The position numbers and the translations under genes were made by a program. From Roseomonas sp. KE0001 (GTDB lineage Bacteria; Pseudomonadota; Alphaproteobacteria; Acetobacterales; Acetobacteraceae), in NCBI RefSeq assembly GCF_016107285.1, contig NZ_RCVQ01000005.1, positions 186,001 to 250,000 of the forward strand: a DNA stretch of 64,000 bases, read 5' to 3'. Under the pieces are notes generated by a model. It was not told the DNA's origin and did not search any database. It saw nothing but the letters and a program-made list of their open reading frames with translations. Every line of letters begins with the position of its first letter. The first letter of the stretch is position 1. Shown in pieces: positions 11,822 to 19,071 of this stretch.

Positions 11822-11976
11822 TCGGGCACCACGGCGTCCCTGTCCCGGCGGGGTTGCGATGCGCGCCGCGCCGGGTCATCCCTGGGCCCATGCTGCCCCG
11901 GCCGTGCCGGGACCCTCCCGCCCAGGAGGAGGATCGCCCCTCCTCGTCGCCATTCGCCTCAAGGGGATCCGCGCGC

Positions 11977-13812
11977 ATGAATGCCGACCTTGTCCTGGTG
12001 CTGCTCCTGCTCGGGCTGGCGGTCGTGCTGTTCATCCGCAACCAGCCGCGCGTCGACGCCGTGGCGCTGATCATGCTCGTCGCCCTGCCGCTGACCGGCA
12101 TCCTGACCATCGGCGAGACCCTGGCCGGCTTCAGCGACCCCAGCGTGGTGCTGATCGCGGCGCTCTTCGTGCTGGGCGAGGGGCTGGTGCGGACCGGCAT
12201 CGCCCGCCGCCTGGGCGACTGGCTGGTGAGGCGGGCCGCCGGCAGCACGGTACGGCTGATCGTGCTGCTCATGCTCATCGTGGCCCTGCTCGGCTCGGTG
12301 ATGAGCTCGACCGGCGTGGTGGCGCTGTTCATCCCTGTCGTGCTGCGCGCCGCCGCGCGGCTCCAGGCGCCGCCGGGCCAGCTGATGATGCCGCTCAGCT
12401 TCGCCGCGCTGATCAGCGGCATGCTGACCCTGGTCGGCACGCCGCCGAACCTGGTGGTCAACAGCGAGTTGCAGCGGTGGGGGCATGAGGGCTTCGGCTT
12501 CTTCGGCTTCACGCCCTTCGGCCTGCCGGTGCTGCTGCTCGGCATCGGCTACATGCTGGTGGCGCGGCGCTGGCTCACCGGCGCGGCCGAGGCGGTGGCC
12601 GAGGCGCGCGGCACCGCCCCCACCCTCCAGGAACTGATCCGGGACTACAGCCTGGAGGGGCGGCTGCACCGGCTGCGCCTGGGCCATGGCTCGCCCCTGG
12701 CCGGGCACAGCCTGGGATCGCTGCGGCTGCGCGCCGGGCATGGGCTGAATGTCCTGGTGGTCGAGCGGCGGCGGCGCCTCGCGGCCGAGATGCTGGACGC
12801 CGCCGCGGAGGTGACGCTGCTGGGTGGCGACGTGCTGGTGGCGACGCTCCCCGCCAACCCGGAGCAGCTGGCCCTGCTCTGCGACCAGCTCAGCCTCCAC
12901 CCCCTGCCTCTGGAAGGCCTCGACCCCGCCGCCCAGCCGCATGCCGTGGGGCTGGCCGAGGTCATCATCGTCCCGGGCTCGGAACTGCGGGACAAGTCCG
13001 TGCTGGAGGCGGCCTTCCGCAGCCACTACGGCCTCACCGTCGCCGGGCTGCGCCGGGGGCTGAAGAGCTTCTCCGACGGTTTTCTGGAGGAGAAGCTGCA
13101 ATCGGGCGACACGCTCCTGCTGGTCGGCCCCTGGAAGGCGCTGCGCCGCTCGCAGCTCGGCCGCCGCGATTTCGTGCTGCTGAACCAGCCGCGCGAGCTG
13201 GAGGAGCCCTCGCCCGCTGTCACGCGCGCGCCGCAGGCCCTGCTCAGCCTGGCCGTGGTGGTCGGGCTGATGGTCAGCGGCCTGGTGCCGCACGTGCATG
13301 CGGCGCTGATCGGGTGCCTGATGATGCTGGGCTTCCGCTGCATCGACCTCGACAGCGCCTACAAGGCCATCCACTGGCAGAGCATCGTGCTGATCGTCGG
13401 CATGCTGCCCTTCTCCCTGGCGCTGCAGCGCACAGGCGGCATCGCCCTGGCGGCGGAGGGGCTGATCGGGCTGGTCGGACAGGCCGGCCCCCAGGCGCTG
13501 CTGGCCAGCCTCTTCGCGGCGACCGCCCTCATCGGCCTCTTCATTTCGAACACCGCGACGGCGGTGCTGATGGCGCCGGTCGCGATCGCCACGGCGCGGG
13601 AGTTGGAGCTCTCGCCCTACCCCTTCGCCATGATCGTGGCGCTGGCCGCCTCCGCCGCCTTCATAACGCCGGTCTCCTCGCCGGTGAACACCTTGGTGAT
13701 GGGCCCCGGCCGCTACCGCTTCGGCGACTTCGTGCGGGTGGGCGTGCCCTTCACCCTGATCGTCATGGCGGTCAGCGTGGCGCTGGTGCCCTGGCTGCTG
13801 CCGCTGCGCTGA
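11977..13812 (+). CDS. SLC13-family permease with RCK_C (TrkA-C) domains
   Basis: A 611-aa membrane protein of the ion-transporter superfamily. The N-terminal helices (residues 3-205) include the SSTGVVALFIPVVL and GTPPNLVVNS motifs of the first half. Two soluble TrkA-C domains follow (about 215-390; note PLAGHSLGSLRLRAGHGLNV and SELRDKSVLEAAFRSHYGL). The second membrane half (about 405-611) has the repeated motifs SNTATAVLMAP and TPVSSPVNTLVMGP. Family members carry sulfate, dicarboxylates or related anions with sodium. The ATG at 11977 starts the first helix; the same frame is open much further upstream but that stretch encodes nothing recognisable. Its 3' end overlaps the convergent NTPase gene by 41 bp. 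Confidence 0.9.
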   Translation: MNADLVLVLLLLGLAVVLFIRNQPRVDAVALIMLVALPLTGILTIGETLAGFSDPSVVLIAALFVLGEGLVRTGIARRLGDWLVRRAAGSTVRLIVLLMLIVALLGSVMSSTGVVALFIPVVLRAAARLQAPPGQLMMPLSFAALISGMLTLVGTPPNLVVNSELQRWGHEGFGFFGFTPFGLPVLLLGIGYMLVARRWLTGAAEAVAEARGTAPTLQELIRDYSLEGRLHRLRLGHGSPLAGHSLGSLRLRAGHGLNVLVVERRRRLAAEMLDAAAEVTLLGGDVLVATLPANPEQLALLCDQLSLHPLPLEGLDPAAQPHAVGLAEVIIVPGSELRDKSVLEAAFRSHYGLTVAGLRRGLKSFSDGFLEEKLQSGDTLLLVGPWKALRRSQLGRRDFVLLNQPRELEEPSPAVTRAPQALLSLAVVVGLMVSGLVPHVHAALIGCLMMLGFRCIDLDSAYKAIHWQSIVLIVGMLPFSLALQRTGGIALAAEGLIGLVGQAGPQALLASLFAATALIGLFISNTATAVLMAPVAIATARELELSPYPFAMIVALAASAAFITPVSSPVNTLVMGPGRYRFGDFVRVGVPFTLIVMAVSVALVPWLLPLR

Positions 13813-14362
13813 GTGGAGCGCCGATCCGGGCCAGGACGAAGCGCAGCCGCTCCGCGACCGGCGCGAGGGGCAGCGGCACCAGCTCGTAACCATAGTCCGC
13901 ATAGGTTTCGGCCATCATCCCGCAGGTGCGCGCGGCCTCGGCCGCGTCCTGCCGCCGCTCGGCGTCGCCGTGGAAGATCGCCGGCCAGTGCGGCGCCAGG
14001 AAGACCTGGCGATGGTAGCGGAAGCGGCGGGCGGCGCGGTCGAGATGCGCCGGGACCGGCAGGCCGCAAAGGCGCAGATAGCCGATGACATCGGGCAGGC
14101 CGCGATCGAACACCACCGGCCCCGCCCGCTCCGCCGCCTCCCGGTGCGAACGCATGTCCCAGAGCGCCATCGCCTCGGCGAAGGCGGCGCGGTCGCGCCA
14201 GGGCAGAGCCGGGCCATCGATCTCCCGCTGGTCCCGGATGATGGCCCGGCCAGCCTCGGGCCGTGTCGCCACGCCCGCGGCCGCCAGGGCGGCGATCAGG
14301 GTGCTCTTCCCCGCGCCGGGCCCGCCGGTGACGATGTGAAAGCGCTCAGTCTCCATGGTCAT
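13772..14362 (-). CDS. P-loop NTPase/kinase-like protein (AAA_28 type)
   Basis: A 196-aa single-domain P-loop protein. Walker A is GGPGAGKSTL near residue 13, followed by VATRPEAGRAIIRDQ and a VVFDRGLPDVIGYL strand, the layout of the small AAA_28 ATPase/kinase family. Function unknown. Three in-frame ATGs (14371, 14362, 14356) are possible starts; 14362 has a GGGGA box about nine bases upstream and is preferred. The C-terminus (SAAAAARAPAPR) is read across the end of the convergent SLC13-type gene. It lies 56 bp downstream of the redox triad on the same strand and may be cotranscribed with it. Confidence 0.75.
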   Translation of the reverse strand: MTMETERFHIVTGGPGAGKSTLIAALAAAGVATRPEAGRAIIRDQREIDGPALPWRDRAAFAEAMALWDMRSHREAAERAGPVVFDRGLPDVIGYLRLCGLPVPAHLDRAARRFRYHRQVFLAPHWPAIFHGDAERRQDAAEAARTCGMMAETYADYGYELVPLPLAPVAERLRFVLARIGAPLSAAAAARAPAPR

Positions 14363-14418
14363 GATTGGCATTCCCCCGAAGCCCTGGTGGAGATGCGGCA
14401 CACGGCGTGCCCCCGCGA

Positions 14419-15654
14419 CTAGCCGCGCGGCAGGGCGGCCTCGTATTCGGCGCGGAAGGTCGCGAGCGAGCTGGCCAGCACCGTCGCCGCCCCGTCCACC
14501 AGCCCGCAGCGGCCGCTGCCCGGCAGCAGACGCGCCAGGTTCTCCAGCGCCGCCAGGTCGCCGGCGCGGCCGGCTCCGGTGTCCAGCCGCTCCAGGATGC
14601 GCGAGACCTGATGCGTGCCGATCTTGCAGGGCGGGCACTGGCCGCAGGAATTGTTGGCGAAGAAGGCGACATACTCCGCCGTCTTGCGAAGGATGCTGGT
14701 GCCCTCGCCGACCACGATCATCGCCCCGGTGCCCAGGCGCGAGCCGCGCGCCCGCAGGCTCTCGAAATCCAGCGCCACGTCGAGATCGCCGGCCGTCAGC
14801 AGGGTGTTGGAGGGGCCGCCGGTGAAGACCGCCTTGAAGCCGCGCCCCGCCAGCATGCCGCCGCCCTGGGTGAAGACCAGCTCGCGCAGACTGGTGCCCA
14901 TCGGCAGCTCGTGCAGGCCGGGACGCAGCACGTCGCCCGAGAGGGAGTAGAGCTTGGTGCCCGCCGCCCCGCCCAGGCCGAGGGCCTGGTACCACGCGGC
15001 GCCGTGCCGCAGGATATGCGGCACATGGGCCAGGGTCTCGACATTGTTCACCAGTGTCGGCGCCCCGTGCACGCCCTGCTGGAAGGGAAAGGGCGGCTTC
15101 AGCCGGGGAAAGGGAAAGCCCCCCTCGACGCTGGAGATCGCGCCGGTCTCCTCGCCGCCGATGTAATGGCCGGAGCTCTCCCGCACTTGCAGCGTCAGCG
15201 CCTGCCCGATCGCCGCCGAGACGGAAGCGGCCAGCGGATGCGCCATCCAGGCGGCGACGGCTGCGCGGCAGGTGAGCACCGCCTCCCTCTCGCGCGGGTT
15301 GATGTAGAGCACCACCTGGGTCGCCTTCACCGCCAGGGCGGCGATCAGCGCCCCCTCGATCACCTGATGCGGCGTCGCGGCCAGCAGGAAGCGATCCTTG
15401 AAGGTGCCGGGTTCGTCCTCGTTGCCGTTGCAGATGATCCACCGCTCCGGCCCGGGCTGCGCCGCGACGCCAGCCCATTTGCGGTGCGTCGGGAAGCCTG
15501 CGCCGCCCAGGCCGCGCAGGCCGGACTGCTCCAGCACGGGGAGGATGGCGCCCGGGTCGGCCAGGGCCCGGGCCAGGCCCTGGCCGCCGCCCCCGGCCAG
15601 CCAGGCCCCGAGGTCGGCGCCGACACAGGCGGCCGGATCGGTGAGCACCTTCAT
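14419..15654 (-). CDS. NuoF-like NADH-binding flavoprotein with [4Fe-4S] site
   Basis: A 411-aa relative of the complex I 51-kDa subunit and of NAD-linked hydrogenase/formate dehydrogenase diaphorases. The FMN/NADH site is visible as LRGLGGAGFPTHRKW (47-60), CNGNEDEPGTFKDR (75-88) and GHYIGGEETGAISSVEG (162-178). An SLBB-type domain follows near 240-330, and the N3-type cluster ligands are CGQCPPC (Cys337, 340, 343) plus Cys383 in GRCG. It should oxidise NADH (or reduce NAD+) through FMN and pass electrons to iron-sulfur centres. The NuoE partner that normally accompanies it is absent. Its start overlaps the stop of the flavoprotein gene by four bases, so it belongs to the three-gene redox unit rather than to a respiratory complex I operon. 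Confidence 0.88.
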   Translation of the reverse strand: MKVLTDPAACVGADLGAWLAGGGGQGLARALADPGAILPVLEQSGLRGLGGAGFPTHRKWAGVAAQPGPERWIICNGNEDEPGTFKDRFLLAATPHQVIEGALIAALAVKATQVVLYINPREREAVLTCRAAVAAWMAHPLAASVSAAIGQALTLQVRESSGHYIGGEETGAISSVEGGFPFPRLKPPFPFQQGVHGAPTLVNNVETLAHVPHILRHGAAWYQALGLGGAAGTKLYSLSGDVLRPGLHELPMGTSLRELVFTQGGGMLAGRGFKAVFTGGPSNTLLTAGDLDVALDFESLRARGSRLGTGAMIVVGEGTSILRKTAEYVAFFANNSCGQCPPCKIGTHQVSRILERLDTGAGRAGDLAALENLARLLPGSGRCGLVDGAATVLASSLATFRAEYEAALPRG

Positions 15655-17270
15655 GCGGCGCGCCCCAGCAGGCCCTCGGCGGTGACGTTGCCATAGGGCG
15701 GAAAGAGCAGCGGCGCCTTGCGGCCGAGATCCAGCCCGGCGGCCAGCAGGCCGCGCCGCCAGCCGGCGAGGTGGTTGAGGCCGAGGTTGCGCGGCCGCTC
15801 GGCCCGCGCCCCGGCGGCGGCCGCCGCCCCGGCGCGGCGCCCGAAGGCGACCAGCTCCAGCAGCGCATTGCCCATCATGCGGTTGCGGCCATGCAGCCCG
15901 CCCGTCACCTCGCCCGCCGCCAGCAGGCCCGGCAGGGCGGTCCGGCCGGCGCTGTCGATCGCCACGCCACCATTCTGGTAGTGCAGCGTCGGCCGCACCA
16001 GGAACGGCTCTCGCGCCGGATCGAAGCCGGCGCGACGCGCGAGGTGCGACAGGGTCAGCAGGCGCTGGCTTAGGATGCCCGGCTGCTCCCGCTCCAGGCT
16101 GGGCGTATCGAGGAAGAGGCCGTGCCGGCCGTCGCGCACGACGCCGCGCCCCTCGGCCAGTTCGCGCAGCATGGCGGAAGCCACCACGTCGCGCGGCGCC
16201 AGCTCGGCGACGAAACGCTCGCCCCGCGCATTCACCAGCCGCGCCCCCGCCGAGCGCGCCGCCTCGCTGACCAGGGCGCCCTCCATGTGCGGCGGCCAGG
16301 CGATGCCGGTCGGGTGGAACTGGAAGCTGTCCGCCTCGCGCAGGCGCGCCCCGGCGCGATAGGCGAGCACCAGCCCGTCCGCCGTGGCGCCATAGTGGTT
16401 GGAGGTCGGGAAGCCGGCGAGATGCAGCCGGCCGGCGCCGCCCGTGGCCAGGATGGTGGCGCCGGCGCGGGCCAGCACCAGCCGCCCCTGCTCCAGGTCC
16501 TGCAGGGCGGCGCCGCCGCAGCGGCCCCGGTCGTCGGTCAGCAGCTCCAGCGCCGGATGGCGGTCCAGCAGGGCGATGCCGGGGGTCAGCAGCACCGCCT
16601 CGCGCAGCGCCCGCATCATCTCGAGCCCGGTGAAGTCGCGGTAGGAGAGCAGCCGCGCCGCCGTGGCGCCGCCGGGCTTCCGGCGCAGCAGCGTGCCGCC
16701 CATGCGCTGCCGCTCGTCGGTCAGGTCGAAGCCCATGCCCTGGCGGATCAGCCAGCGGATGCAATCCGGCCCGTCGCCCACCAGGGCCGCGACCAGCGCC
16801 CGGTCGGCGGCGAAATGGCCGGCGCGCAGCGTATCCTCGAAATGCCGCTGCAGACTGTCCTCGGCGCCCACGGCCGCCTGGATGCCGCCCTCGGCCATCA
16901 CCGTGTTGCCATCGCCCATGCGGAGCTTGGTGGCCAGCAGCACCCGCGCGCCGGCCCGCGCCGCCGTCAGCGCGGCGACGCATCCGGCCCCGCCGCCGCC
17001 GAGCACCAGCACGTCGGCATCGAGGATCGGCGCCCCGGCGATGTCGATGTCCTCCAGCAGGGAATCCGCCTCGAGCAGCGCGGCCAGCTCGGGCGGCACG
17101 GTCGCCCCGGCATCCGGACCGGCGCGCAGCGGCACCAGCCCGCCGGGGCGATGATCGGGATGGAAGCCCTTCAGCAGTTCCGGCACGGCGAGGGGGCAGG
17201 CCCGCTCCGGCGCCGGGGCCGCGGCGGCCCAGGCCCGCATCGCCTCGTCATAGGGCAGGCCGCCGCTCAT
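15651..17270 (-). CDS. Fumarate reductase/succinate dehydrogenase-type flavoprotein
   Basis: A 539-aa FAD protein of the SdhA/FrdA/NadB family. After an unusual 85-residue N-terminal extension comes the FAD-binding GGGGAG (91-96), then AEGGIQAAVG, the substrate-site FQFHPTG (316-322), an Arg at 339 in the position of the catalytic Arg loop, HYQNGG with His430, and HGRNRMMGN (Arg464). Dicarboxylate-binding residues are therefore kept. The His that binds FAD covalently in membrane Sdh/Frd is replaced by Asn122 (GDGNTVMAEGG), as in NadB and soluble enzymes. It probably interconverts fumarate and succinate, or oxidises a related dicarboxylate, with electrons from the adjacent Fe-S and NuoF-like subunits. 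ATGA overlaps tie it to both neighbours. No membrane anchor genes are nearby. Confidence 0.87.
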   Translation of the reverse strand: MSGGLPYDEAMRAWAAAAPAPERACPLAVPELLKGFHPDHRPGGLVPLRAGPDAGATVPPELAALLEADSLLEDIDIAGAPILDADVLVLGGGGAGCVAALTAARAGARVLLATKLRMGDGNTVMAEGGIQAAVGAEDSLQRHFEDTLRAGHFAADRALVAALVGDGPDCIRWLIRQGMGFDLTDERQRMGGTLLRRKPGGATAARLLSYRDFTGLEMMRALREAVLLTPGIALLDRHPALELLTDDRGRCGGAALQDLEQGRLVLARAGATILATGGAGRLHLAGFPTSNHYGATADGLVLAYRAGARLREADSFQFHPTGIAWPPHMEGALVSEAARSAGARLVNARGERFVAELAPRDVVASAMLRELAEGRGVVRDGRHGLFLDTPSLEREQPGILSQRLLTLSHLARRAGFDPAREPFLVRPTLHYQNGGVAIDSAGRTALPGLLAAGEVTGGLHGRNRMMGNALLELVAFGRRAGAAAAAGARAERPRNLGLNHLAGWRRGLLAAGLDLGRKAPLLFPPYGNVTAEGLLGRAA

Positions 17271-17950
17271 GCCGGCGGGGCTGCGGGTGGCTGGGCCCCG
17301 GGCGCGTCCGGGTCGATCCGCTGGCCGCCGCCCTCGATCTCGTGCAGCCGCTGCATCAGGTCGGCCGGGCGCAGGGTCAGGGCGGCGCTCATCCGGCGGG
17401 CGAACTGGCCGAGATGCGCGGGGTCGATATGCTCCGGGCAGGCGGCGACGCAGAGGTTGCACATGACGCAGTGGTCGAAGAGCCCGGCCGCCGCGAAGAC
17501 CTGGCCCTCGGCGGCCAGGTTGACCATCCGCTGCACCTCGATCCCCTTGGGGCAGGCGCGGTCGCAGCCGCTGCAATGGCGGCAGTGCCGCGCCTCGGGA
17601 AAGACGCGATCGATCTGCTCGGGGATGGACCAGCTGTCGCCCAGCGCCTCGAGGTCGTAGGCATGCGGCCGCCGGGCCGGGAAATGATCGATGAAGGCGA
17701 CCTGCATCCCCTCCTCGGCCACCACCTCGCAGGCCAGGGCGGTGCCGGCGATGCGCTCGCCCGTCCGCCGCACCAGCACCCGGCACGCGCCGCAGACGCC
17801 CTGGCCGAGGCAGCCGACATTCTCCGTCAGGGGCAGCCCGGCGCCGATCCAGGCCTGCAGCAGGGAAAGGCCCGGCCGTGCCTCGATGGCGTGCCCGTCG
17901 AAGACGAGGCGGACCCCCTTCTCCTCGCCTCCGATCTCGCTGCCCGGCAT
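17267..17950 (-). CDS. Iron-sulfur subunit, [2Fe-2S] plus two [4Fe-4S] (FrdB/SdhB-like)
   Basis: A 227-aa electron-transfer protein. The N-terminal ferredoxin fold has [2Fe-2S] ligands Cys47, 53, 56 and 74 (GCLGQGVCGAC ... ALAC). The C-terminal dicluster domain has CRHCSGCDRACPKG (Cys123, 126, 129, 133) and CVMCNLCVAACPEH (Cys161, 164, 167, 171). In ordinary SdhB/FrdB the second group supplies a [3Fe-4S] centre, with the middle Cys of its CxxCxxC replaced; here both groups keep four Cys, suggesting two full [4Fe-4S] clusters, as in soluble thiol- or NADH-linked fumarate reductases. First gene of the triad, overlapping the flavoprotein gene by ATGA. It would wire the NuoF-like diaphorase to the flavoprotein. 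The Pro/Ala-rich C-terminal 15 residues look disordered. Confidence 0.88.
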   Translation of the reverse strand: MPGSEIGGEEKGVRLVFDGHAIEARPGLSLLQAWIGAGLPLTENVGCLGQGVCGACRVLVRRTGERIAGTALACEVVAEEGMQVAFIDHFPARRPHAYDLEALGDSWSIPEQIDRVFPEARHCRHCSGCDRACPKGIEVQRMVNLAAEGQVFAAAGLFDHCVMCNLCVAACPEHIDPAHLGQFARRMSAALTLRPADLMQRLHEIEGGGQRIDPDAPGAQPPAAPPA

Positions 17951-17966: not shown

Positions 17967-18977
17967 CTAGACGTGGCGATGCAGGGCGGCGCCCAGCAAC
18001 CCGGTATGCGGGCGCAACACCTGCCCGATCGGGATGGTTTCCAGATAGCCCGAGAAACGACCCTTCGCGGTGAAGCCGCGGATCAGCTCCTCCCTGTCGA
18101 GCAGGGGGCCGAGGTTGCGGCAGAGCCCGCCCGTGACATGCACGCCGCCCTCGGTCAGCAGGGTCAGGGCGTAGTTGCCGGCCACCGAGCCCAGCAGGAA
18201 GCAGAACAGCCGCACCGCCTCGGCCGAGGTCGGACAGTCGCCGGCGGCGGCGCGGTCCGAGACATCGCGCGGCGTCTCGTAGCGGATGGCGGTGCCGCGG
18301 ATCTCCGCCAATGACCGCGCCGTCTGCAACAGGCCGGGCCCGGAGACCAGCCGCTCGGCCGAGACATGGCCGCCATGGATCTCCCGCAGCCGCCGCAGCA
18401 GCTCGGCCTGCAGCGCGTCCTGCGGCGCGAAGGAGGCGTGGCCCGCCTCGCTCGGCGCCACGCGCCATCCCTGGCCACCGGAGGCGGGGCCGTCGGGCAG
18501 CAGGAAGGCGACGCCGAGGCCGGTGCCGGGGCCGATCACCAGCCTCGGCCGCCCGGCCTTCGCCTCGCCCGGCTTCAGCGCGCGGAGATCCTCGCCGCCG
18601 AGCGCCGGGATGGCGGTGGCCTGGGCGACGAAGTCGTTGATGACGGCGAGGTCGCGCAGGCCGAGCCGCTCCCGCGCCGCGCGGATCGAGAAACGCCAGG
18701 CGCTGTTGGTGAAGGCGACGGTATCGCCCAGCACCGGCGTCGCCACGGCGAAGACGGCATCCCGCACCTCGCGCCCCGCCAGATAGGCCTCGGCCGCCTC
18801 GATCAGCCCGGGATGGTCGGCGACCGGCAGCTTGCGCTCCTCCCGCACCTGTCCATCCGGGCCGCAGAGCGCGAAGCGGGCATTGGTGCCGCCGATGTCG
18901 CCGACCAGCCGCGGCATCGCATCCGCCGGCGCGCGGGGCTCGGGGGAAGGGCGTCCGGTCGGGGTCGGGCTGTTCAT
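17967..18977 (-). CDS. glk: Glucokinase
   Basis: A 336-aa glucokinase of the bacterial Glk family (ATP:glucose 6-phosphotransferase, cytoplasmic), a little longer than the usual 320. Visible motifs are the phosphate-1 loop VGDIGGTNARFAL, NDFVAQATAIPAL, the adenosine-site GPGTGLGVAFL, and the substrate loop EAGHASFAP. The start is set at MNSPTPTGRP because AGGAG lies eight bases upstream; the first 20 residues are Pro-rich and not part of the fold, so a later Met (MPRLVGDIGG) is the alternative. It is read in the same direction as the redox triad, 16 bp upstream of its first gene. Confidence 0.92.
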   Translation of the reverse strand: MNSPTPTGRPSPEPRAPADAMPRLVGDIGGTNARFALCGPDGQVREERKLPVADHPGLIEAAEAYLAGREVRDAVFAVATPVLGDTVAFTNSAWRFSIRAARERLGLRDLAVINDFVAQATAIPALGGEDLRALKPGEAKAGRPRLVIGPGTGLGVAFLLPDGPASGGQGWRVAPSEAGHASFAPQDALQAELLRRLREIHGGHVSAERLVSGPGLLQTARSLAEIRGTAIRYETPRDVSDRAAAGDCPTSAEAVRLFCFLLGSVAGNYALTLLTEGGVHVTGGLCRNLGPLLDREELIRGFTAKGRFSGYLETIPIGQVLRPHTGLLGAALHRHV

Positions 18978-19071
18978 CGGTTCCGCTCCTGGCCGAGGCT
19001 TCGGGGAAGGCTTTCCAGCGTTTCCAGCACGTTCGGCGCCGCGGCACAAGGAACCGGCAGGCCCCTCCCCC

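What the first reader, a model, noticed from the sequence alone, without database searches (positions are those of the whole stretch)
14419..17950. Compact three-gene redox complex: NuoF-like + FrdA-like + Fe-S protein
Three genes joined by ATGA overlaps encode an NADH/FMN diaphorase of the complex I 51-kDa type, a fumarate reductase/NadB-type flavoprotein and a [2Fe-2S]/2x[4Fe-4S] protein. Seen: all FMN, NADH, FAD, dicarboxylate and cluster motifs are intact, and no membrane anchor or NuoE gene is nearby. Known: a soluble multi-subunit NADH-dependent fumarate reductase exists in Hydrogenobacter. Inferred: this is a minimal three-subunit NAD(H)-linked fumarate reductase or succinate (or other dicarboxylate) oxidoreductase in a presumably aerobic acetic-acid-type bacterium, where its role (redox balancing, NAD recycling, catabolism of an unusual acid) is not obvious.
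Basis: partly seen in the sequence, partly recalled or inferred. Interest (0 to 1): 0.72.

Follow-up and report, generated by a model that had tools for sequence, protein, structure and literature searches.

The report
Minimal soluble NADH-linked fumarate reductase
Three overlapping genes in an acetic-acid-type bacterium most likely make a small water-soluble enzyme that passes electrons from NADH straight to fumarate (making succinate) without the membrane; the trio stays together in distantly related bacteria, and its activity has not been tested.

Summary
Confirmed: window 14419-17950(-) holds FeS (227 aa), FAD (539 aa) and NuoF-like (411 aa) genes joined by two ATGA overlaps. All three sit together in 78 of the 80 relatives kept (Roseomonas kin, Cupriavidus, Paraburkholderia, Pseudomonas, Neisseriaceae, Xanthobacter, Myxococcales MAGs). 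Fumarate-reductase catalytic residues and Fe-S cysteines are kept; the covalent-FAD His is Asn in 81/81, the NadB-type Glu is absent. The FAD subunit lacks the C-terminal FrdA domain and has an N-terminal extension. Main clue: a sister clade (43-52% identical, no NuoF found in its flanks) lies beside succinyl-CoA ligase and 2-oxoacid oxidoreductase genes in 12 of 14 loci, the succinate/fumarate slot of a probably reductive TCA cycle (TfrAB in the literature). The window's clade has NuoF as NADH input. DASS dicarboxylate-type transporters lie nearby in 46 of 80 loci (about 0.4 expected), class I fumarase in 8. Best reading: a compact, soluble, non-bifurcating NADH:fumarate reductase for redox balance and C4-acid exchange; a new variant of a known kind (Hydrogenobacter NADH-dependent Frd; TfrAB). 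Substrate, direction and complex formation are inferred, not shown; structure prediction was never available.

The parts
17267..17950 (-). FeS subunit (227 aa): N-terminal plant-type [2Fe-2S] domain plus C-terminal 2x[4Fe-4S] dicluster domain; FrdB-like core without a CCG (thiol) domain
17729..17812 (-). Cys 47, 53, 56, 74: putative [2Fe-2S] ligands
   Evidence: Cys in 78 of 79 rows, gap in one
17438..17584 (-). Cys 123/126/129/133 and 161/164/167/171: two [4Fe-4S] motifs (no 3Fe-4S variant)
   Evidence: Cys in 79 of 79 rows
15651..17270 (-). FAD catalytic subunit (539 aa), FrdA/TfrA/NadB superfamily, with ~80-aa N-terminal extension and without the C-terminal FrdA domain
16905..16907 (-). Asn122 in place of the FAD-anchoring His of FrdA/SdhA
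   Evidence: Asn in 81 of 81 rows and 15 of 15 further rows
15879..16316 (-). fumarate-reductase active-site residues His319, Glu336, Arg339, Arg360, His430, Arg464
   Evidence: kept in 81 of 81 rows (Arg464: 80 and one gap) and in 15 of 15 further rows
14419..15654 (-). NuoF-like NADH/FMN diaphorase subunit (411 aa) with N3 [4Fe-4S]; no NuoE-like or ferredoxin-like extra domain
14506..14646 (-). Cys 337/340/343/383: N3-type [4Fe-4S] ligands
   Evidence: 80 of 80 rows

Best explanation
The operon encodes a soluble heterotrimer that oxidises NADH and reduces fumarate to succinate in the cytosol. Proposed path: NADH -> FMN -> N3 [4Fe-4S] (NuoF-like) -> [4Fe-4S] -> [4Fe-4S] -> [2Fe-2S] (FeS protein) -> non-covalent FAD -> fumarate. 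The cluster order in the FeS protein is by analogy with FrdB, with NuoF docking where FrdB meets its quinone anchor. It arose when a two-subunit TfrAB-type fumarate reductase, found beside SucCD and 2-oxoacid oxidoreductase genes in related lineages, was joined to a NuoF-type NADH module. In heterotrophs it serves as a membrane-independent NADH sink coupled to C4-dicarboxylate uptake or exchange (malate/fumarate in, succinate out). Shown: gene content, conservation, linkage, neighbours, phylogeny. Inferred: complex formation, electron path, substrate, direction, evolutionary step, role.
For: Triad kept in 78 of 80 loci, one strand and order; pairwise distances of the subunits correlate (r 0.94-0.96 over 78 rows; no species-tree control). 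Catalytic residues kept. Sister clade: SucC, SucD and KorA beside FAD in 12 of 14 loci, KorB in 11 of those 12 (the twelfth contig ends), pyruvate:ferredoxin oxidoreductase genes in 8-9, MDH-FumAB in one; in 29 of the 30 distant phylum matches with short flanks, SucC in 27, FeS in 26, NuoF in none. NuoF-bearing rows form one side of a branch (93/89, not starred; 92% of bootstraps). DASS transporter in 46 of 80 loci, 41 within 1 kb, about 0.4 expected; class I fumarase in 8 of 80, malic enzyme in 3, Asp/Ala-type antiporter in 2. Asn for the FAD-linking His fits fumarate reduction rather than succinate oxidation (mutant result recalled, not looked up); the known soluble NADH-dependent enzyme is called practically irreversible (PMC10521678, passage). 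The genome has its own SdhA (986 bits) and NuoE/second NuoF.
Against: The SucCD/Kor evidence comes from relatives only 43-52% identical, and none of the 80 NuoF-type loci has SucC, SucD, KorA or KorB nearby. That the sister clusters run reductively is inferred: ATP-citrate lyase was not searched for. The tree program warns that long branches meet (no-NuoF rows with the E. coli references), so the sister relation is less sure than its support. Ser replaces Thr at 335, and Pro/Ala/Val/Cys replaces the relatives' Gly at 199, so specificity could have shifted. 24 of 80 loci, including both Roseicella loci (closest relatives), have none of the C4-linked genes sought; at the window only a distant SLC13-type permease is near (below the DASS cut-off). 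A NuoF-type subunit without NuoE is unusual (recalled). No structure or assay.
Confidence: 0.72

Rival explanations
1. Same architecture but another unsaturated carboxylate (mesaconate, aconitate, itaconate-type or similar) is reduced, or its saturated form is oxidised with NAD+, in catabolism of an unusual acid.
For: Triad-specific changes near the substrate pocket (Ser335 in 80 of 81, Pro199 in 62 of 81, Arg462 in 74 of 81); neighbours include tripartite tricarboxylate transporter genes and, on one plasmid, PTS plus E1/E2 genes; DASS carriers also take tricarboxylates (recalled).
Against: The dicarboxylate-binding and catalytic residues checked are those of fumarate reductase; Arg462 is variable in the distant relatives, so it is probably not a specificity residue; fumarase and malic enzyme point to C4 acids; Tct genes are common in these genera (recalled) and only 1 of 13 loci has TctC within 1 kb.
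Confidence: 0.15
2. Succinate:NAD+ oxidoreductase running in the oxidative direction.
For: The reaction is formally reversible; carriers of a family that takes succinate (recalled) lie nearby.
Against: Succinate/fumarate (+30 mV, passage) is far above NAD (-320 mV, recalled); loss of the covalent-FAD His (81 of 81) abolishes succinate oxidation in E. coli FrdA (recalled); an SdhA over its cut-off exists in the genome.
Confidence: 0.05
3. Flavin-based electron bifurcation: NADH reduces fumarate and a ferredoxin together.
For: Best PDB match of NuoF is a bifurcating HydB (300 bits), narrowly ahead of a NADH-quinone oxidoreductase NuoF (297 bits); a GGPS motif is present (GGPSN; GGPSG marks bifurcating subunits); 16 of 80 rows carry the bifurcating-type Phe at 236; relatives L094 and L144 lie beside Hdr/Flx-type genes (annotated in L094; my reading of ORFs in L144).
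Against: By the criteria of PMC7311640 (passages): Thr84 and Lys86 in 80 of 80 and Tyr236 in 64 of 80 are the non-bifurcating states, the last motif residue is Asn not Gly in 80 of 80, and the extra Fe-S domains are missing (sampled lengths 407-418).
Confidence: 0.04
4. An NAD-linked L-aspartate oxidase (NadB-like) for NAD synthesis.
For: NadB models score about as high as FrdA models on the FAD subunit.
Against: The NadB Glu is absent in 81 of 81; no NadA match in this genome, while 12 of 14 control genomes ring.
Confidence: 0.02

Closest known systems
TfrAB-type 'putative thiol:fumarate reductase' of reductive-TCA clusters (PMC6315080, passages read)
   Same: By name and neighbourhood the kind to which the FAD + FeS core belongs (TfrA is also the best NCBIfam model); the sister clade lies beside SucCD/Kor or Hdr/Flx-type genes. 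The paper's own sequences were not compared.
   Different: No NuoF found in the sister clade's flanks; here NuoF is the third gene and no SucCD/Kor neighbourhood was seen; methanogen TfrB has a thiol-oxidising CCG domain (recalled) that is absent here
Soluble NADH-dependent fumarate reductase of Hydrogenobacter thermophilus (Miura 2008; paper not held; title seen in reference lists and one citing passage)
   Same: NADH-linked, soluble, fumarate reduction (as titled)
   Different: That enzyme has five subunits (recalled); this one has three genes and no NuoE; its sequence was not compared here
E. coli FrdABCD / SdhABCD (complex II)
   Same: FAD fold, catalytic residues, FeS protein with an N-terminal [2Fe-2S]
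   Different: No membrane anchor gene beside it, four Cys in both dicluster motifs (no 3Fe-4S variant), no covalent-FAD His, no C-terminal FrdA domain; NADH module instead
NuoF/HydB/FdsB-type diaphorase subunits
   Same: FMN, NADH and N3 motifs
   Different: No NuoE partner or fused equivalent nearby; adjoins an FrdB-like protein
L-aspartate oxidase NadB
   Same: FAD_binding_2 fold; no FAD-linking His
   Different: Lacks the Glu that marks NadB; lies in an operon with redox subunits

Membership tests
NADH-linked soluble fumarate reductase (functional class) | FrdA-type catalytic residues | tested here: met
NADH-linked soluble fumarate reductase (functional class) | NADH/FMN diaphorase subunit in the same operon, conserved | tested here: met
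   78 of 80 loci
NADH-linked soluble fumarate reductase (functional class) | soluble, no membrane segment | tested here: inconclusive
   KD maxima 1.54-1.80, between the usual limit and the permease control
NADH-linked soluble fumarate reductase (functional class) | NADH-dependent fumarate reduction by the purified complex | not testable with these tools
   needs an assay
Hydrogenobacter five-subunit Frd | five subunits including a NuoE-like one (recalled) | tested here: not met
   three genes; the genome's single NuoE match lies elsewhere
Hydrogenobacter five-subunit Frd | sequence homology of the catalytic subunit | not tested
   no Aquificota sequence was fetched
TfrAB (CoM/CoB thiol:fumarate reductase) | TfrA curated model cut-off | tested here: not met
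   best NCBIfam match, 323 bits against cut-off 718
TfrAB (CoM/CoB thiol:fumarate reductase) | CCG (thiol) domain in TfrB (recalled) | tested here: not met
   no CCG pattern; no such Pfam hit
Complex II (Sdh/Frd) | covalent FAD His | tested here: not met
   Asn in 81 of 81
Complex II (Sdh/Frd) | membrane anchor subunits in the operon | tested here: not met
   adjacent reading frames are a glucokinase and an ATPase, by my reading
NadB | substrate-amino-binding Glu (E121, recalled) | tested here: not met
   0 of 81
Bifurcating NuoF/HydB | Ala/Glu and Met near NADH, Phe near FMN, GGPSG, extra Fe-S centres (PMC7311640) | tested here: not met
   window has Tyr, but Phe in 16 of 80 rows

The most novel reading that the evidence does not exclude
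One soluble fumarate-reductase core (FAD + FeS) is a plug-in device: in lineages with SucCD/Kor clusters it takes electrons from a still unknown donor or an Hdr-Flx complex, and in the window's clade a NuoF subunit without NuoE docks directly on the FeS protein. This gives the smallest NADH:fumarate reductase of the multi-subunit type and a membrane-free NADH sink in heterotrophic proteobacteria, spread by horizontal transfer.
Probability: 0.55. Interest if true: 0.62.

Novelty: new variant of a known kind. Interest (0 to 1): 0.5.

Why it matters
If the reading is right, bacteria regarded as respiratory heterotrophs (recalled for these genera) carry a cytosolic route for re-oxidising NADH with fumarate, independent of quinones and oxygen. 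That would bear on survival at low oxygen, succinate excretion and C4-acid exchange, and would give a compact three-gene tool for succinate production. It also suggests exchange of electron-input modules on one catalytic core, testable by comparing the NuoF-type, Hdr/Flx-type and SucCD/Kor-type forms.

Tried and rejected
Structure prediction of the FAD subunit was asked for 11 times; the machine was busy every time, so no fold search was made and nothing about contacts or cluster distances is claimed.

FNR-box scan upstream of FeS: of 77 upstream regions none had a perfect site; two had one mismatch and ten had two, with uncorrected shuffle fractions from 0.03 up; inconclusive, not used. Glucokinase, 16 bp upstream in the window, is not a conserved neighbour (1 of 80 loci, about 6 kb away). 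Tct and Dct transporter genes were counted but not weighed, since they are abundant in these genera (recalled). An extra Arg at position 462 first suggested a tricarboxylate substrate; dropped because the residue is variable in the distant relatives. Tricarballylate literature (listing only) gave nothing bearing on this family.

A first neighbour clustering held spurious high-GC ORFs and mixed families; it was replaced by direct tblastn with named queries, the queries themselves being taken from these loci. The 80 loci are the best 80 of 236 relatives found by a pattern scan; the other 156 were not seen.

Literature searches, listings seen: 0 papers; 6 of 6; 8 of 22; 30 of 160; 10 of 48; 12 of 327; 7 of 8; 5 of 5,931. 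No listed title describes this three-gene form; most lists were capped and the library holds open-licence papers only, so this is weak evidence of absence.

Full report
What is there. Three genes on the minus strand, FeS (17267-17950), FAD (15651-17270) and NuoF-like (14419-15654), are joined by two ATGA overlaps. NCBIfam and Pfam identify a complex-I 51-kDa-type subunit below the NuoF equivalog cut-off (372 of 559 bits), an FAD_binding_2 protein whose best NCBIfam model is TfrA (323 of 718 bits), and a [2Fe-2S] plus 4Fe-4S dicluster protein. The genome has a second NuoF (639 bits) and its single NuoE match on contig C1, and an SdhA over its cut-off on C34 (986 bits).

Linkage. A pattern scan of genome contigs with the FAD protein found 236 relatives, of which the best 80 were returned. 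All three genes lie together in 78 of the 80, in the order FeS-FAD-NuoF on one strand in 78 of 78. The two exceptions are L065, whose contig starts inside FAD, and L078, whose contig ends inside FAD. In the window's own family, 9 of 150 sampled genomes match at E<=1e-100 (own included); 8 of these carry NuoF beside FAD and one (G143, 44% identical) does not. In a phylum sample, 31 of 398 match at E<=1e-75; apart from the own genome these are 46-52% identical, and no NuoF relative was found in the short flanks of 29 of these 30 (the thirtieth was not fetched). The NuoF form is therefore patchy. On a tree of 60 chosen rows (41 of the 80 loci among them), copies from Comamonas and Chitinasiproducens (Betaproteobacteria) nest inside Roseomonas kin, which points to horizontal transfer.

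Active site. Against E. coli FrdA, SdhA and NadB (fetched), His319, Glu336, Arg339, Arg360, His430 and Arg464 are kept (81 of 81 rows; Arg464 80 plus one gap). The His that carries covalent FAD is Asn in 81 of 81. The position of the NadB Glu is Pro (62), Ala (15), Val (3) or Cys (1), never Glu. That these positions are the catalytic, FAD-linking and aspartate-binding residues is recalled knowledge of the structures. The C-terminal domain of FrdA/SdhA is missing and an N-terminal extension of about 80 residues with a conserved HPD motif is present.

The sister clade. Longer flanks were fetched for 13 of the 30 distant phylum matches plus G143. In these 14 loci no NuoF relative is found (tblastn E<=1e-6) and an FeS gene is found beside FAD in 13 (in L143 the contig ends). 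SucC, SucD and KorA lie immediately downstream of FAD in 12 of 14, KorB in 11 of those 12 (the contig of L131 ends). Of the two others, L133 is a 4.5-kb contig, and L144 lies beside HdrA/Flx-like ORFs (by my reading) and a weak KorB match (36%). Genes like pyruvate:ferredoxin oxidoreductase occur in 8-9 of 14, and one locus (L136) adds malate dehydrogenase and fumarase directly upstream. Names were checked with NCBIfam on L139 and L136 only; succinyl-CoA ligase, 2-oxoacid:acceptor oxidoreductase, malate dehydrogenase and fumarase pass their cut-offs, the pyruvate enzyme does not. With short flanks, SucC is seen in 27, SucD in 21 and FeS in 26 of 29 distant matches. FAD and FeS thus fill the fumarate/succinate slot of a TCA cycle that uses 2-oxoacid:acceptor oxidoreductase, probably the reductive one; ATP-citrate lyase was not searched for. 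Rubin-Blum et al. (PMC6315080, passages read) describe tfrAB genes among korABCD and flx-hdr genes in sulfur oxidisers, and the Ilyobacter plasmid locus L094 has FeS and FAD beside Hdr-type genes. In 15 further rows (13 distant, L093, L094) the catalytic residues and the Asn are kept in 15 of 15. With the E. coli proteins as outgroup, NuoF rows (43) and no-NuoF rows (14) fall on two sides (93/89 and 100/99*), but the program warns of long branches meeting.

Neighbours of the NuoF form. DASS-family transporters lie in 46 of 80 loci, 41 within 1 kb, in several orientations and from several DASS subgroups. The count includes one weak 28% match (L018). Control: 22 DASS genes over the cut-off in 12 genomes of 70.5 Mb, genomes chosen because they carry a DASS beside the module, hence an overestimate; this predicts 0.4 in the 1.25 Mb of loci. 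The loci are not phylogenetically independent. Class I fumarase lies near the module in 8 of 80 (seven Neisseria and Alysiella); malic enzyme in 3; an aspartate-alanine-type antiporter in 2. SucC, SucD, KorA and KorB are near none of the 80. 24 of 80 have none of the C4-linked genes sought, including both Roseicella loci closest to the window. At the window itself the only candidate seen is a convergent SLC13-like permease, below the DASS cut-off.

Mechanism. NADH reduces FMN in the NuoF-like subunit; electrons pass through N3 and the clusters of the FeS protein to FAD, where fumarate is reduced with Arg360 as proton donor by analogy with FrdA (recalled). The cluster order follows FrdB and is inferred. 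The reaction is strongly downhill and, being soluble, conserves no energy: a redox valve. A passage in PMC10521678 calls the known soluble NADH-dependent reaction practically irreversible. Bifurcation is unlikely by the criteria of PMC7311640 (passages read): Thr84 and Lys86 in 80 of 80, Tyr236 in 64 of 80 (Phe, the bifurcating state, in 16), GGPSN in place of GGPSG in 80 of 80, no extra Fe-S domains. An aspartate oxidase role is made very unlikely by the missing Glu and by the absence of a NadA match.

Novelty. Soluble NADH-dependent fumarate reductase (Hydrogenobacter; paper not held, known to me by title and recall) and TfrAB are known kinds. A three-gene, NuoE-less form in proteobacteria was not seen in the listings of the searches made (most lists capped). 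I rate it a new variant of a known kind.

Noticed in passing
window 11971-13812 (+): SLC13/DASS-like permease (146 bits to TIGR00785, cut-off 198.6) convergent with the module, one small ATPase gene between; a 71% homologue lies beside the module in L026.
   Followed up: partly
window 17967-19049 (-): Glucokinase-like gene (by my reading) ends 16 bp upstream of the FeS gene; not a conserved neighbour.
   Followed up: yes
window 13772-14419 (-): Reading frame with a P-loop (ATPase-like) directly downstream of NuoF; only weak helicase-model hits.
   Followed up: no
L093 (Pseudoroseomonas cervicalis plasmid pL11-C) 1-10783: The triad follows PTS IIC/IIA/IIB, 2-oxoacid dehydrogenase E1/E2 and homoserine dehydrogenase genes (as annotated): perhaps a branch with another role.
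   Followed up: no
L066 (Propionibacteriaceae MAG): An actinobacterial MAG copy nests inside Roseomonas copies: binning error or recent transfer.
   Followed up: no
L139 6276-7178, L140 10462-11349, L142 12774-13607: A similar-looking small gene of unknown function recurs between the pyruvate-oxidoreductase-like genes and FeS in the sister clade (by eye).
   Followed up: no
L069, L081, L082 (Azorhizobium, Azospirillum, Xanthobacter): Module beside an NtrC-type regulator and histidine kinase, an LldD-like gene and, in two of the three, malic enzyme and an AspT-type antiporter.
   Followed up: partly
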